DNA from: Erysipelotrichaceae bacterium
GTDB taxonomy: Bacteria; Bacillota_I; Bacilli_A; Erysipelotrichales; Erysipelotrichaceae
Assembly (NCBI GenBank): GCA_017512885.1
Contig: JAFWEP010000003.1
Location: 124,001 to 188,000 of the forward strand
DNA: 64,000 nucleotides
Direction: 5' to 3'
Part shown: piece by piece, positions 46,530 to 57,319 of the stretch
Numbering within the stretch: the stretch's first letter is position 1
How the letters are laid out: every line of letters starts with the position of its first letter
Translations under genes and position numbers: made by a program
The notes under the pieces: model-generated
Databases searched by the model: none
The model's input: the letters and a program-made list of their open reading frames with translations, nothing else
What the model was told of the DNA's origin: nothing

Positions 46530-46616
46530 ATCTACGGTCTGCCCAGGCGGTCGGCTCGTCTCATACGGTTCCATGTGGTCTATTCCACTTTTCCGCCAGT
46601 AGCCGTATGTATCGAC
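46530..46616 (-). ncRNA. ZTP (pfl) riboswitch with expression platform
   Basis: Read on the minus strand, the leader has CATACGGCTACTGGCGG, a GTGG-AATAGA-CCAC hairpin, GGAACCGTATG and, after a short linker, GCCGACCGCCTGGGCA. That order and the invariant CCGCCTGGGC end are those of ZTP riboswitches, which bind ZMP/ZTP (AICAR phosphates) when 10-formyl-THF is short. A hairpin GACCG..CGGT followed by TTTTTG just after the aptamer is the likely terminator that ligand binding prevents. It precedes purE. Confidence 0.9.
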
Positions 46617-51399: not shown

Positions 51400-51655
51400 A
51401 GATATACAGCGTTGAAGGGAAAGAGTAACCCTGTGAAAGCTGAGAGAGAGTCCCTGGGTGGTGAAAAGGGATGAGCGGAAACAGAGTGAACACATCCCGG
51501 AGCAATCCACCGAAGTCACAGTAGGCTGGATCGGATGCACCCGTTATCGTGCCAGGGTATGTTGGTACCCGGAGAGGTCCTGATCGTGAGGTCAGGGCGA
51601 AATAAGGTGGAACCGTGGGATAGACTCCCGCCCTTATGGGCGGGAGTTTTCTGTT
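51400..51655 (+). ncRNA. T-box riboswitch, specifier read as CAC (His)
   Basis: The 389-base gap before the transporter holds a T-box leader. AGTAACC (5' side of the specifier loop), the GAGAGAG region, the T-box AATAAGGTGGAACCGTG (51601-51617) and a strong terminator (ACTCCCGCCC/GGGCGGGAGT, 51624-51647, then TTTT) are all present. The 3' side of the specifier loop reads GAA-CAC-A before TCCCGGAG; by analogy with the usual GAA-NNN-A pattern the codon is CAC, histidine. ACA (Thr) one base later is the alternative. Uncharged tRNA would prevent termination. Confidence 0.88.
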
Positions 51656-53198: not shown

Positions 53199-54632
53199 AT
53201 GGAACAGAAAGAATTCATTCAGAAGGTCATTGCGCAGAAGAAAGACATCCTGCTCGCTGCCAGTGATCAGATCTATGACTTTGCCGAACTGGCCTTTGAA
53301 GAAGTGCGCTCTGCCGCTCTGCTGGAAGAGATCCTGCAGCAGGAAGGCTTTACGGTAGAGACCGGACTGGCCGATATCCCCACCGCTTTCTCCGGGACAT
53401 GGGGCACAGGTTCTCCGGTCATCGGTTTTCTGGGCGAATACGATGCCCTCGACGGTCTCTCGCAGAAAGCCGGCTGCTGGGTACATACGCCCGTAAAGGA
53501 AGGCGCACCGGGACATGGCTGCGGACACTGCCTTCTGGGCAGCGCAGCCTTAGGCGCTGCGATCGCCGTCAAAGAATACCTGCAGCAGAATAACGAAAAA
53601 GGCACCGTCATCTGCTTCGGCTGTCCGGCTGAAGAAGGCGCCGGCTCCAAGCAGTTCATGGCCAGAGACGGCATCTTCGATGTCTGTGACTATGTCTTCA
53701 CCTGGCATCCCGCTATGACCAATGACGTCAGCGCCAACTCCACCACCGCCATCATGGGTGCCAACTTCTCCTTCCGTGGCAAGGCTGCCCATGCGGGCGG
53801 TTCGCCCTGGCTCGGCCGCAGTGCATTGGATGCGGCGGAACTGATGAACGTCGGCTGCAACTACCTCCACGAACACATGAAGGACGGTCAGCGTGTCCAC
53901 TACGCCTACGGCGATGCCGGCGGAACGGCGCCCAATGTCGTGCCGGCCTATGCCCGGGTCAAATACGAGGTGCGGGCCCGTACCGTCAAAGAGTGTCAGG
54001 AGCTTTTTGAAAGAGTTACGAAGGTCGCCGAAGGTGCAGCCCTGATGACCGAGACCCAGATGGAATGCCAGATCACGATGGCCTTCTCCGACTTTACCAA
54101 CAACCCCGTCCTGGCCAAGGTCGCTTCCGATACGCTCACAGAACTGGGAGCTCCGGAATGGAGCGAGGAAGACTATGCCCTGGCCAGAGCCTTCTTGAAC
54201 TCCTATGAACCGCTGCAGCTCTCCGGCATCAAGGAGAGTCTGAAGGAACGTTTCGGCAGTGAAAAGCTCGAGACGATCCTGCAAATGCCCCTGCATGACA
54301 GCGTCATCCCCTACGATCCCGCCAAAGGCATCCCGGTCGGCGGCTCGAGCGATGTCGGAGACGTCAGCTATGCCGTGCCGACCTGTGAGATCCATGTTGC
54401 CACGCAGTGCCTGGGCAACATCGGCCATACCTGGCAGAATGCAGGACAGTCTGCTTCACCTCTCGGACGCAAGGGTCTCCTGCGGGCGGCAGAAGCGATG
54501 GCGCTCTCTGCCCTGCGCATGCGCGATCCGCAGCTGATCACCGAAGCGAAGAAAGCTACGCTGGCGCGTAACGGCGGAAAGTATGTATGTCCCCTGCCGG
54601 CAGACGTCAAGCCGCCGATCGGCACTTATTGA
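53199..54632 (+). CDS. M20 family amidohydrolase/peptidase, AbgB-like
   Basis: A 477-residue zinc hydrolase. GHGCGHCLLGSAALG and CPAEEGAGSKQFM are the metal and catalytic glutamate motifs, TWHPAM and a late GSSDVGDVSYAVPT continue the family pattern; the dimerisation domain lies around residues 185-310. Its size is that of the p-aminobenzoyl-glutamate hydrolase B group. It is 8 nt after the permease, so it probably hydrolyses the imported amide. Its 3' end overlaps the reverse transcriptase gene by 7 nt, tail to tail. Confidence 0.88.
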   Translation: MEQKEFIQKVIAQKKDILLAASDQIYDFAELAFEEVRSAALLEEILQQEGFTVETGLADIPTAFSGTWGTGSPVIGFLGEYDALDGLSQKAGCWVHTPVKEGAPGHGCGHCLLGSAALGAAIAVKEYLQQNNEKGTVICFGCPAEEGAGSKQFMARDGIFDVCDYVFTWHPAMTNDVSANSTTAIMGANFSFRGKAAHAGGSPWLGRSALDAAELMNVGCNYLHEHMKDGQRVHYAYGDAGGTAPNVVPAYARVKYEVRARTVKECQELFERVTKVAEGAALMTETQMECQITMAFSDFTNNPVLAKVASDTLTELGAPEWSEEDYALARAFLNSYEPLQLSGIKESLKERFGSEKLETILQMPLHDSVIPYDPAKGIPVGGSSDVGDVSYAVPTCEIHVATQCLGNIGHTWQNAGQSASPLGRKGLLRAAEAMALSALRMRDPQLITEAKKATLARNGGKYVCPLPADVKPPIGTY

Positions 54633-55831
54633 GCAGCCAGACGGCGGTTCTCCTCCTTCCAACGGTAGAATTCCGCGACCAGCGGAGTATAGCCCAGCTT
54701 CTTCAGTTCTGCGTAACGGATGCGGTAATTCGCTTTAGTGTGTCTGCCGCTCTGCAGATAGCGCAGATATTCCTGCAGACAGCGGTCGATCTGCGAAAGA
54801 CCCTCCGTCTCCGTCAGGAGTGGAAAATAGAAACGGCTCCAGGTGAACTCCCCGGTCCCGCTGAGATCGTAGAACTTGTTGTCGAAATAACGGATCAGAG
54901 AGCGTGCCCGCTTTTCCCAGGGCACGTTTTCTTTTTCGTCCTGCCGATAGATCCTTCTGGCTTTGCGGCGGATCTTCGCCTGCATCTTCCGGACCGTGAC
55001 CGCAGAAAGACCGACTCTTCCGGCCTGACAGGAAAGACCGAGGTAGCTGATGGGCTCGCCCGGTGCAAAGAAGCAGGTCTTTTCTTCATTGAGCTGCAGC
55101 TTCCTTTCCTGCAGACGTTCTTTGAGCAGGAGCAGTCCTTCTTCTCTTTCTTCTACGCTGTCGAAAAGCAGCAGCAGATCATCGGCATAACGAAAATACG
55201 GAATGCCTCTTTCCCGGAAGCAGGCATCCAGGTCCTTCAGATAGATATTGGCCAGGAAGTTGGCGACCGGCACGCCTGGCAGCGCTCCCCGTTTCTCCAT
55301 GATCTCTTCCCCTCTATAGATGCAGCGCCCCTGCTGCAGGATCTCCCGCAGGAACTGCAGCAGTTCCGGATCGTCATCGAGTACTTCCGCAAGATCCTGA
55401 CACAGCAGTTCCGGATCGATCGAAGCGAAGTAATCGTGGATATCGGCCTTGAGGACATACTTCTTCTCCAGGTCTCCGACCTGCAGCAGTCTTCCGACCG
55501 CTGTCTTCACCTGATAGTTCTTTCGGAAGGAGTAGCAGTCTTCGCTGATCTTTCCGTCATAGGCATAGAGCAGCCAGGCCAATACCTTCAGCACCCGGTT
55601 CTCCGCTTCCGGAAAGGTATAGACCGTGCGCTTCCTGCGGGAGCCCTGTTTGGAGAGGATCTTCTTTTCCGGCAACGGAAAAGAAGACAGAGCGACCCTC
55701 TGCCAGCCTTCTTCCGCAATAAAAGCTTCGAGATCCCTGATCTCCCGCGGAGACAGCTGTCCCCGTTCTTTCTTTTCCTGCAGGTATTCCTGCCAGGTCT
55801 CTTTATCCTGCAGCCTTTTCAGCAGTTCCAT
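54626..55831 (-). CDS. free-standing reverse transcriptase (group II-like, unassigned class)
   Basis: A 401-residue RNA-directed DNA polymerase. SFRKN near residue 101 matches the group II YGFR block, VLKADIHDYFASI carries Asp130, RGALPGVPVANFLANIYL spans 181-198, and FRYADDLLLLF holds the YADD catalytic pair at 215-218. NEEKTCFF and ISYLGLS follow in the palm and thumb. A C-terminal extension contains TKANYRIRYAELKKLGY. No maturase endonuclease, retron NAxxH motif or diversity-generating partner is seen. The ATG has no Shine-Dalgarno site and directly follows a U run; TTG at 55834 is the alternative. Confidence 0.9.
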   Translation of the reverse strand: MELLKRLQDKETWQEYLQEKKERGQLSPREIRDLEAFIAEEGWQRVALSSFPLPEKKILSKQGSRRKRTVYTFPEAENRVLKVLAWLLYAYDGKISEDCYSFRKNYQVKTAVGRLLQVGDLEKKYVLKADIHDYFASIDPELLCQDLAEVLDDDPELLQFLREILQQGRCIYRGEEIMEKRGALPGVPVANFLANIYLKDLDACFRERGIPYFRYADDLLLLFDSVEEREEGLLLLKERLQERKLQLNEEKTCFFAPGEPISYLGLSCQAGRVGLSAVTVRKMQAKIRRKARRIYRQDEKENVPWEKRARSLIRYFDNKFYDLSGTGEFTWSRFYFPLLTETEGLSQIDRCLQEYLRYLQSGRHTKANYRIRYAELKKLGYTPLVAEFYRWKEENRRLAAQ

Positions 55832-55832
55832 C

Positions 55833-55965
55833 AAAAAAAGAAAGAGAAAGAGCTTTGAAGTAAGCTGTGCTTACGATACCGGAGCGTACCTGTTCCAACG
55901 GTCTGCAACGTTCTGTACGGAACAGGCTGGGACCTTCACAGACACAGAAGTGCTTTTCTCTTTCT
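55833..55965 (-). ncRNA. Structured RNA element directly upstream of the reverse transcriptase
   Basis: AGAAAGAGAAA (55839-55849) pairs with TTTCTCTTTCT (55955-55965), and after one bulged base AGC pairs with GCT, giving a 14-bp closing stem. Inside are three hairpins: CCTGTTCC/GGAACAGG (55889-55896 with 55919-55926), GTAAGC/GCTTAC (55860-55865 with 55869-55874) and a small CTTC/GAAG (55934-55950). On the minus strand it ends in seven U, then GATG of the RT. It looks like a compact RNA that ends or stalls transcription, or serves the RT as template or cofactor. Confidence 0.6.
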
Positions 55966-55974
55966 GTCGAAAAA

Positions 55975-56523
55975 CTACAGATACTTCCGTAATCTTTCTG
56001 TAATGTAGGGTACGGTATTGGGATAATGGACGACGAAGTTCAGGAAGGGGATGCCCTTCTTCTCAGCGACTTCTCTGGCCCAGCGGTATTCGCGGTGAGC
56101 GGTCGTGGTCTTCCCGATCAGCATCATCACCAGTTTCGGAACTTCTCCTTCAGAAACGACCAGTGAATAGTTCATGAACTTCCCTTCGCCGCCCAGTTCG
56201 CTCGGAGAAACATCCTCCCTTACCGTATACTGCGGGAACTCCTTTGCCAGGACTTCCAGGATCTTCTCTTTGCAGTCCCGTCCGTCTTCCTCGAAGTATT
56301 CCTGCTTCGCCTCTTCCCGGGCAGTATCCGCACCGGTCTTCAGACTCTGCTTCAGTCCTTCGAGATCAACGTCCTTCAGCTGTTCCTTCAGCTCTCCGGC
56401 AGCGTTTTCCAGATTCCCCTTCAGTTCGTTCAGAAAAGAAGCAGCCTTCTCTTTATTCTCTTCGGTGGCTACTTCCTTGAGGGCTTTAGCACCCTCAGAG
56501 ATCAGCTTATCAAAGATTCCCAT
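55975..56523 (-). CDS. hypothetical protein with coiled N-terminus
   Basis: A 182-residue cytoplasmic protein, not recognised. Residues 1-75 are Ala/Glu/Lys-rich and likely coiled (KEVATEENKEKAASFLNELK). Residues 80-182 form a compact mixed domain, with GEGKFMNYSLVVSEGEVPKLVMMLIGK and FLNFVVHYPNTVPYI, which distantly recalls restriction-endonuclease-like folds; I assign no activity. It lies just upstream of the RNA element and RT on the same strand and could be cotranscribed with them. GAGGAC precedes the ATG. Confidence 0.7.
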   Translation of the reverse strand: MGIFDKLISEGAKALKEVATEENKEKAASFLNELKGNLENAAGELKEQLKDVDLEGLKQSLKTGADTAREEAKQEYFEEDGRDCKEKILEVLAKEFPQYTVREDVSPSELGGEGKFMNYSLVVSEGEVPKLVMMLIGKTTTAHREYRWAREVAEKKGIPFLNFVVHYPNTVPYITERLRKYL

Positions 56524-56572
56524 ATTATTGTCCTCTGTTTCTTTTCTTCAGCATACCATATTCCCGATTTTT

Positions 56573-57319
56573 TTACAGTTTAATGTTTCGTACAAAATAC
56601 CAGTGTTCATCATCCGAGATCTCCGGCACATAGCGGTAACCCAGCCGGTCATAGGCTTTGAACTCTTCCGGATCAGTTGTGCGGTGTTCCGCCAGCCAGC
56701 GTACGCTGTCGCCCCGGGCGATCTTGGCATAGACGCCTTTGGTGCTCAGTTTCCCTTCTTCCTCTTCCGCAAAGAGGATGCGGATGCAGCGGTCTTCCTT
56801 CTTCAGATAAGGGGATACTGCTTTGGAATACTCCTCGGAAGCGAGATCCAGGAAGATGCCGTCGCCGTCCCGGACCTCTTCATAGATCTTCTCTCCCCAC
56901 CAGGCATAGAGATCCTTCCCTTCCGGAGCTCCTTTAGTCTGCATCTCCAGGCGGTAGGGAATGATGCCGTCAAAGGGCTTCAAAGCACCATAGAATCCGG
57001 AGAGGATACGCAGATGCTGCCGGAGGTAGTCGAACTCTTCCTCATCGAAGAGCGACGGTTCCATCGTCGTATACTGGATCCCGTCATAAGCCAGCAGCGC
57101 CGGACTCATTCCCTGCTGCAGATCCCTCTGCAGATACTTCTCCGCATTCAAAGCGATCTTTTCACTGCAGGCCCAGAGCTTCTTCCTTTCTTCGTGAGAA
57201 AGAGAAAGCAGCCAATGCCGCAGTTCCTGCGCTTCCGAAAGAAAGACCGGCAGACTGCGGTAAACGAAGTCGTCGGTCGCTTCCTTCATCTTCTTGGCCG
57301 GAGCGATCAGTATCCTCAT
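56573..57319 (-). CDS. yaaA: peroxide stress protein YaaA
   Basis: A 248-residue DUF328 protein. MRILIAPAKKMKEATDD, the mid-region LAYDGIQYTTMEPSLFDEEE and LRILSGFYGALKPFDGIIPYRLEM are the family blocks. In Escherichia coli YaaA lowers free iron and DNA damage under peroxide. It overlaps bcp by 4 nt, a fitting partner. Confidence 0.92.
   Translation of the reverse strand: MRILIAPAKKMKEATDDFVYRSLPVFLSEAQELRHWLLSLSHEERKKLWACSEKIALNAEKYLQRDLQQGMSPALLAYDGIQYTTMEPSLFDEEEFDYLRQHLRILSGFYGALKPFDGIIPYRLEMQTKGAPEGKDLYAWWGEKIYEEVRDGDGIFLDLASEEYSKAVSPYLKKEDRCIRILFAEEEEGKLSTKGVYAKIARGDSVRWLAEHRTTDPEEFKAYDRLGYRYVPEISDDEHWYFVRNIKL

What the first reader, a model, noticed from the sequence alone, without database searches (positions are those of the whole stretch)
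54626..55965. Reverse transcriptase with a closed structured RNA element ending at its start codon
The RT (YADD) has no group II endonuclease, retron NAxxH motif or diversity-generating partner. Directly upstream on the same strand is a 127-nt element closed by a 14-bp stem (one bulge), with three internal hairpins, a 7-U run, then the RT start. Closing inverted repeats just before an RT gene recall retron a1/a2 repeats, but the RT looks group II-like. It may be a new RT-ncRNA pair, an RT cofactor or template, or an attenuator.
Basis: partly seen in the sequence, partly recalled or inferred. Interest (0 to 1): 0.85.

Follow-up and report, generated by a model that had tools for sequence, protein, structure and literature searches.

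The report
Reverse transcriptase with pseudoknotted RNA cofactor
A gut-bacterial reverse transcriptase of an uncharacterised family (UG26) is encoded right after a conserved, pseudoknotted small RNA (RT-5) and a conserved partner protein; the three travel together across bacterial phyla and most likely form an RNA-guided DNA-making complex related to known anti-phage enzymes, although nothing about its activity has been tested.

Summary
On the minus strand, 55839-55965 is a 127-nt element abutting the RT start, and it is the catalogued but uncharacterised Rfam family RT-5 (66.9 bits). The RT is PADLOC group UG26 (2.7e-139).

Across 78 homologous RNAs from Bacillota, Bacteroidota and Actinomycetota the closing stem is paired in 97% of cells, with compensatory changes at all 11 pairs. 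A pseudoknot absent from the Rfam model is paired in 99%. The closing stem is 98% purine-to-pyrimidine oriented.

The RNA precedes the RT in 70 of 71 distant loci. A third gene (55975-56523) precedes the RNA in 70 of 80. It has a Vsr-like endonuclease fold whose usual catalytic residues are not conserved.

It is therefore an RT-ncRNA pair, not the terminator of the upstream gene; a mere attenuator is unlikely, since in one genome trkA-trkH separate RNA from RT. The RT's nearest relatives are ncRNA-templated antiphage RTs (DRT10, DRT9, DRT2, DRT3a). The conserved 10-nt loop UUCAAAGCNN sits where DRT3/9/10 keep their template, so I propose it is the template. The DRT10 repeat signature was tested and not found. 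No activity, cDNA or defence data exist, and sampled neighbours are not defence genes.

The parts
54626..55831 (-). Reverse transcriptase, group UG26 (401 aa from ATG at 55831-55829; TTG 55834 is an alternative start)
   Evidence: PADLOC RT_UG26 2.7e-139 over profile 1-397/398; AlphaFold pLDDT 94.5; mostly 47-55% identity to family homologues, 39-40% to the two most divergent
55839..55965 (-). RT-5 ncRNA, full element P1 to P1 (127 nt)
   Evidence: Rfam RF03026 at 55846-55947; extended model R1, 126 bits, 55839-55965
55955..55965 (-). P1 closing stem, 5' purine arm (RNA nt 1-11)
   Evidence: pairs with 55839-55849; 97.3% of cells paired, all 11 pairs with double changes in 78 sequences
55944..55953 (-). 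P2 short hairpin
   Evidence: 97.4% paired, all 3 pairs with double changes
55938..55943 (-). Pseudoknot strand 1 (GUCUGU, RNA nt 23-28)
   Evidence: 99.3% paired with 55901-55906; 43 double-change cells vs 7.3 in shuffles
55880..55935 (-). P3/P3b long hairpin, loop carries pseudoknot strand 2
   Evidence: covariation, (P3 lower 78.5%, P3 upper 95.2%, P3b 94.1% paired)
55901..55906 (-). Pseudoknot strand 2 (GCAGAC, RNA nt 60-65)
55860..55874 (-). P4 hairpin (GUAAGC ACA GCUUAC)
   Evidence: 96.3% paired, all 6 pairs with double changes
55850..55859 (-). J4/1 loop UUCAAAGCUC, proposed template
   Evidence: UUCAAA in 65 of 78 homologues; position analogous to the DRT3/9/10 template loop; the role is inferred
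55839..55849 (-). P1 closing stem, 3' pyrimidine arm (RNA nt 117-127)
   Evidence: 98.3% of P1 pairs are 5' purine / 3' pyrimidine, other helices 45-68%
55833..55839 (-). U7 run after P1, probable RNA 3' end
   Evidence: direct reading; a U-run of 5 or more follows the RNA in 52 of 77 loci
55975..56523 (-). Partner protein (182 aa): helical N-terminus plus Vsr-like endonuclease-fold domain (residues ~80-182)
   Evidence: RTasCOG2852 4.3e-8; directly upstream of the RNA in 70 of 80 loci; VIA-align Z 9.7 to I-Bth0305I, 8.4 to Vsr
55972..55995 (-). Hairpin over the partner's last codons and stop codon, conserved in Erysipelotrichaceae only
   Evidence: core set 89.5% paired, 12 double changes vs 3.6 in shuffles; not clearly above chance in distant loci

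Best explanation
The locus encodes a three-part ribonucleoprotein system: partner protein, RT-5 ncRNA, UG26 reverse transcriptase. The RNA is transcribed between the two genes, ends at the U-run after P1, folds into a closed and pseudoknotted scaffold, and binds the RT in trans. Like other Class 2 UG/DRT enzymes, the RT most likely copies a short loop between the last hairpin (P4) and the 3' arm of the closing stem, here the conserved UUCAAAGCNN, into DNA. That DNA, or the RNP, controls the partner, a Vsr-fold protein whose usual catalytic residues are not conserved and which has an amphipathic helical N-terminus. The most likely purpose is anti-phage. Shown here: the RNA, its structure including the pseudoknot, its linkage to RT and partner, and the folds as confident predictions. 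Inferred: trans binding, template use, control of the partner, defence.
For: RNA structure: 78 homologues, 93.8% of cells paired against 69.5% in shuffles, 757 double-change cells against 221. The pseudoknot was not in the model used to align, yet is paired in 99.3% of cells. Linkage: RNA upstream of the RT in 70 of 71 distant loci and beside every RT found in the window's own family; partner upstream in 70 of 80. In the window's genus the module sits at different chromosomal places with no shared neighbours, so it behaves as a unit. A discrete trans-acting RNA is favoured by three things: trkA-trkH lie between RNA and RT in L158; terminator-like hairpins lie between RNA and RT in several loci (for example L074, L104); U-runs follow P1 in 52 of 77. 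Kinship: after UG26, the best PADLOC UG profiles are UG17 (=DRT10) and UG27, with Drt9, Drt3a and Drt2 further down; PDB sequence and fold matches include DRT9 and DRT2. Template position: DRT10 needs its template directly downstream of a stem-loop; the DRT9 template is U123-126 of a ~150-nt RNA; the DRT3 template ACACAC is conserved and analogously placed. J4/1 is nt 107-116 of 127 and conserved.
Against: No RNA, cDNA, binding or phage data exist for this family in anything I could read. The microhomology (A-B-A') that drives tandem-repeat synthesis in DRT10 is not enriched in J4/1 (3.26 against 3.35 in shuffles, p 0.96), so the template role and product type are uncertain. Ten proteins sampled from the neighbourhood of other loci are ordinary genes, not defence genes. 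There were no UG26 matches in plasmid or phage records. The RT tree largely follows phylum, unusual for mobile defence. Ten loci lack the partner.
Confidence: 0.6

Rival explanations
1. RNA as scaffold only: RT-5 is a structural cofactor that activates or oligomerises the RT, and the RT makes untemplated or differently templated DNA (for example from cellular RNA, or as a repair polymerase).
For: No repeat microhomology in the putative template loop; J4/1 is conserved as a binding site would be; best fold matches are group II RTs and the repair-type G2L4 RT; family is chromosomal, mostly vertical, next to ordinary genes.
Against: Characterised Class 2 UG enzymes all copy their cis ncRNA, and UG26 scores nearest to these.
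Confidence: 0.25
2. Cis-regulatory leader: the element is an attenuator or translational switch for the RT gene.
For: It abuts the start codon (median gap 20 nt, 52 of 77 within 30 nt) and is followed by a U-run; the window RT has no obvious Shine-Dalgarno sequence.
Against: RNA stays with the partner when trkA-trkH separate it from the RT by 3 kb; it is specific to one RT family over three phyla; the pseudoknot and J4/1 are conserved while spacing to the start codon varies from 0 to over 100 nt.
Confidence: 0.08
3. Retron-like msr/msd: the closing stem acts as a1/a2 and the interior is reverse transcribed from a branching guanosine.
For: Closing inverted repeats just upstream of an RT gene.
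Against: RT is UG26, not a retron RT; no NAxxH in the window RT (2 of 76 homologues); the interior is a conserved pseudoknotted fold, not an msd-like hairpin; only RT-5 scores meaningfully in Rfam.
Confidence: 0.03
4. The element is only the terminator of the gene at 55975-56523.
For: P1 followed by U7, starting about 10 nt after that gene's stop codon.
Against: Covarying P2, P3, P4 and pseudoknot; kept in partnerless loci next to the RT.
Confidence: 0.02

Closest known systems
RT-5 RNA, Rfam RF03026
   Same: The element scores above the family's gathering threshold.
   Different: The Rfam model has 104 positions and leaves out or unpaired what is here the closing stem P1, hairpin P2 and the pseudoknot; function not assigned.
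UG26 reverse transcriptases (PADLOC RT_UG26)
   Same: Full-length match 2.7e-139.
   Different: Nothing in type; no experimental study in the papers held. This RT is the only YADD among 76 (the rest YSDD).
DRT10 (UG17), Tang et al. 2025, PMC12632851
   Same: Three parts: a cis ncRNA of similar length (137 nt), a small partner protein and an RT; central closing stem with stem-loops; loop after the last stem-loop in the template position; UG17 is the nearest other UG profile.
   Different: Partner is SLATT there, a Vsr-fold protein here; DRT10 template is poorly conserved with A-B-A' repeats, here the loop is conserved without them; ncRNA lies upstream of SLATT there, between partner and RT here.
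DRT9 (UG28), PMC12483538
   Same: ncRNA immediately upstream of the RT; conserved template near the 3' end; fold match Z 23.2.
   Different: Template is poly-U there, UUCAAAGC proposed here; DRT9 is described as a two-component system (RT and ncRNA; PMC12489045 abstract).
DRT2, PMC12039810
   Same: RT with a neighbouring pseudoknotted ncRNA.
   Different: DRT2 RNA is 280 nt with a 120-nt variable template encoding a repeat gene; here no conserved never-ending ORF was found.

Membership tests
Rfam RT-5 (RF03026) | Score above gathering threshold | tested here: met
   66.9 vs 45.7 bits
UG26 RT (PADLOC) | Full-length match to the group profile, well above other groups | tested here: met
   2.7e-139; next UG group UG17 7.7e-30
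Class 2 UG / DRT systems | RT groups with Class 2 (UG2, UG3, UG17, UG28) | tested here: inconclusive
   Profile scores point to UG17/UG27 and Drt9/Drt3a; no tree with the other groups was built
Class 2 UG / DRT systems | Conserved ncRNA encoded in cis | tested here: met
   70 of 71 distant loci
Class 2 UG / DRT systems | ncRNA-templated tandem-repeat cDNA | not testable with these tools
   needs sequencing of DNA products
Class 2 UG / DRT systems | Anti-phage activity | not testable with these tools
   no phage assay; sampled neighbours not defence genes
DRT10 | SLATT partner | tested here: not met
   Partner is RTasCOG2852-like with Vsr-like fold
DRT10 | A-B-A' microhomology in template loop | tested here: not met
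   observed match length not above shuffles
DRT9 | Universally conserved poly-U template | tested here: not met
   loop is UUCAAA in 65/78
Retron | NAxxH motif in RT | tested here: not met
   absent from the window RT; 2 of 76 homologues
Group II intron | Intron RNA (domains V/VI) around the RT | tested here: not met
   No group II family in the Rfam scan of 54400-56700 at E<=1; NCBIfam group_II_RT_mat 111 bits, cut-off 300
DGR | Template/variable repeat pair | not tested
   no search made

The most novel reading that the evidence does not exclude
A new DRT type whose RNA carries a short, conserved, non-repeating template (UUCAAAGC) or uses the pyrimidine arm of its closing stem as template, making a fixed short or purine-rich DNA that regulates a catalytically dead Vsr-fold partner: a DNA-ligand switch outside the tandem-repeat scheme of the known Class 2 systems.
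Probability: 0.2. Interest if true: 0.8.

Novelty: new variant of a known kind. Interest (0 to 1): 0.62.

Why it matters
UG26 relatives appear at 505 or more places in the GTDB-based genome collection, and the sampled loci are mostly rumen and gut bacteria; no experimental study of the group was found in the papers searched. Joining three separately catalogued pieces (RT-5, UG26, RTasCOG2852) into one module, with a complete RNA structure and a named template candidate, makes the function directly testable. It also offers a comparison for how DRT and telomerase-like enzymes choose and reset templates, because here the expected repeat microhomology is missing.

Tried and rejected
First genome-contig scan with the single RT found nothing; the alignment query found 505 relatives. 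Viral contigs gave no UG26; the three scanned by PADLOC carry UG27, and no RT-5 was found on them by Rfam, nor by R1 on L160 and L163. DRT10-like A-B-A' in J4/1 plus P1 arm: no enrichment. DRT2-like never-ending ORF in concatemers: only 14-28 of 78, not conserved. Pairing of the loop CUUUG with J4/1 CAAAG looked attractive in close relatives but fails by eye in Bacteroidales rows of A4. Stop-codon hairpin as part of the RNA: only in the core clade. UG17 loci for a structural comparison: none in 392 genomes, and none in the control genomes either, so the search says nothing about absence. Partner in Pfam: nothing above cut-off for the window protein. No sigma-70-like promoter by simple scan. 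The papers defining RT-5 and the UG groups are not held, so how far they already describe P1, the pseudoknot or the partner could not be checked. AlphaFold coordinates are not readable here, so the distance from invariant Y373 to the active site, a test of protein priming, was not measured.

Full report
What is there. On the minus strand the window carries, in order, a 182-aa ORF (56523-55975), a 127-nt element (55965-55839), a U7 run and a 401-aa reverse transcriptase (55831-54626). The element matches Rfam RT-5 (66.9 bits). The RT matches PADLOC UG26 over its full length (2.7e-139). The upstream ORF matches PADLOC RTasCOG2852 weakly (4.3e-8), as do 19 of 24 members of its close alignment. 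The genome has one RT-5 copy.

Conservation and linkage. UG26 was found in 14 of 146 genomes of the window's family, and RT-5 in 33 of 295 genomes of its order. Every UG26 RT there has the RNA directly upstream; the two most divergent score just under the Rfam threshold. One RNA (L076) has no RT nearby. A profile scan of GTDB species genomes gave 505 relatives, of which 80 were kept, in Bacillota, Bacteroidota and Actinomycetota. A covariance model built from 23 close sequences finds the RNA in 70 of 71 distant loci. An HMM of the partner finds it upstream of the RNA in 70 of 80. Order is nearly always partner, RNA, RT. In a Ruminococcus clade without partner the RNA-RT pair sits, in several genomes, between metG and a sigma-factor gene (gene names from reading the translations).

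RNA structure. On 23 close sequences 95.4% of cells pair, with 78 double-change cells against 20 in shuffles. On 78 sequences closing stem P1 is 97.3% paired and all 11 pairs show changes on both sides. That alignment was fitted to the model's structure, so P1-P4 counts lean towards it. The pseudoknot was not in the model and is still 99.3% paired with 43 double changes against 7.3 expected, which makes it the cleanest evidence. P1 is strikingly asymmetric: 98.3% of its pairs have the purine on the 5' side, against 45-68% in the other helices. This asks for more than base pairing and is unexplained; template use, a triple helix or protein binding are possible. The loop between P4 and P1 is usually 10 nt and reads UUCAAA in 65 of 78.

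Discrete RNA rather than leader. U-runs of five or more follow the RNA in 52 of 77 loci. Some loci have a separate terminator-like hairpin before the RT (L074, L104). In one Prevotellaceae contig trkA and trkH (named from their translations) lie between RNA and RT while the RNA keeps its full structure beside the partner.

The proteins. The RT model (pLDDT 94.5) is closest to GsI-IIC group II RT (Z 29.5, 365 aligned, 3.5 A), then G2L4 RT (26.2), DRT9 (23.2) and DRT2 (21.6). By sequence profile the nearest UG groups are UG17 (DRT10) and UG27; UG27 in turn scores UG26 second. Y373 near the C-terminus is invariant in 76 RTs and is a candidate priming residue by analogy with DRT9 and DRT10; this is inference. 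The partner's C-terminal domain has a Vsr/restriction-like fold (Z 9.7, 88 aligned, 2.4 A to I-Bth0305I; 8.4 to Vsr), moderate values that fit PADLOC's COG2852 label. Position 118, where I would place the usual metal-binding Asp by the fold, is P, N or D (30, 16 and 10 of 64) and no (D/E)xK is kept, while N169 and R177 are invariant. So it is probably a non-catalytic nucleic-acid-binding relative.

Mechanism. Characterised Class 2 UG RTs use a cis ncRNA as template: DRT10 tandem repeats, DRT9 poly-dA from poly-U, DRT3a poly-dTdG from ACACAC, DRT2 a rolling repeat gene. In DRT3, 9 and 10 the template sits in an analogous loop, in DRT10 immediately after a stem-loop. The UG26 loop J4/1 is the counterpart. 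I therefore propose RNA-templated short DNA synthesis from UUCAAAGCNN. The repeat-resetting microhomology of DRT10 was tested with a permutation control and is absent, so the product may not be a tandem repeat, or the loop may be a binding site and the RNA a scaffold.

Function. Anti-phage defence is the default by kinship. Context does not help: ten sampled neighbouring proteins were ordinary (GH125, Arg-tRNA synthetase, serine dehydratase, a transporter and others), there were no matches in plasmid or phage records, and the tree largely follows phylum (4 changes against 26 shuffled). Yet within the window's own genus the module is at different places.

Novelty. The RNA and RT are catalogued families; no paper found treats UG26 experimentally. 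What this analysis adds, subject to the two defining papers not being readable here, is the full RNA structure with pseudoknot and oriented closing stem, the three-part module, the degenerate nuclease-fold partner, and a specific template prediction.

Noticed in passing
window 55972-55995 (-): Hairpin formed by the partner's last codons and stop codon; in Erysipelotrichaceae the stop codon's third base covaries with its pairing partner.
   Followed up: yes
L158:4810-8001: trkA and trkH genes lie between the RT-5 RNA and the UG26 RT in a Prevotellaceae contig.
   Followed up: yes
L076:9828-9968 (-): RT-5-like RNA without any UG26 RT nearby, next to IS200/IS605-type transposase and TnpB-like genes; perhaps an orphan after RT loss.
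   Followed up: partly
L160, L163, L164: UG27 RTs, apparently the sister group of UG26, on IMG/VR viral contigs; no RT-5 RNA found on them.
   Followed up: partly
L100, L102, L113, L117, L155: Ruminococcus clade with a partnerless UG26, several fixed between metG and a sigma-factor gene; looks like a domesticated, vertically kept copy.
   Followed up: partly
RNA helix P1 in 78 loci (A4): 98.3% of closing-stem pairs are 5' purine / 3' pyrimidine, with no explanation.
   Followed up: partly
window 51403-51638 (+): T-box leader (124.6 bits) upstream of genes that look like an amino-acid ABC transporter and an M20 peptidase.
   Followed up: no
window 46534-46613 (-): ZMP/ZTP riboswitch (55.2 bits).
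   Followed up: no
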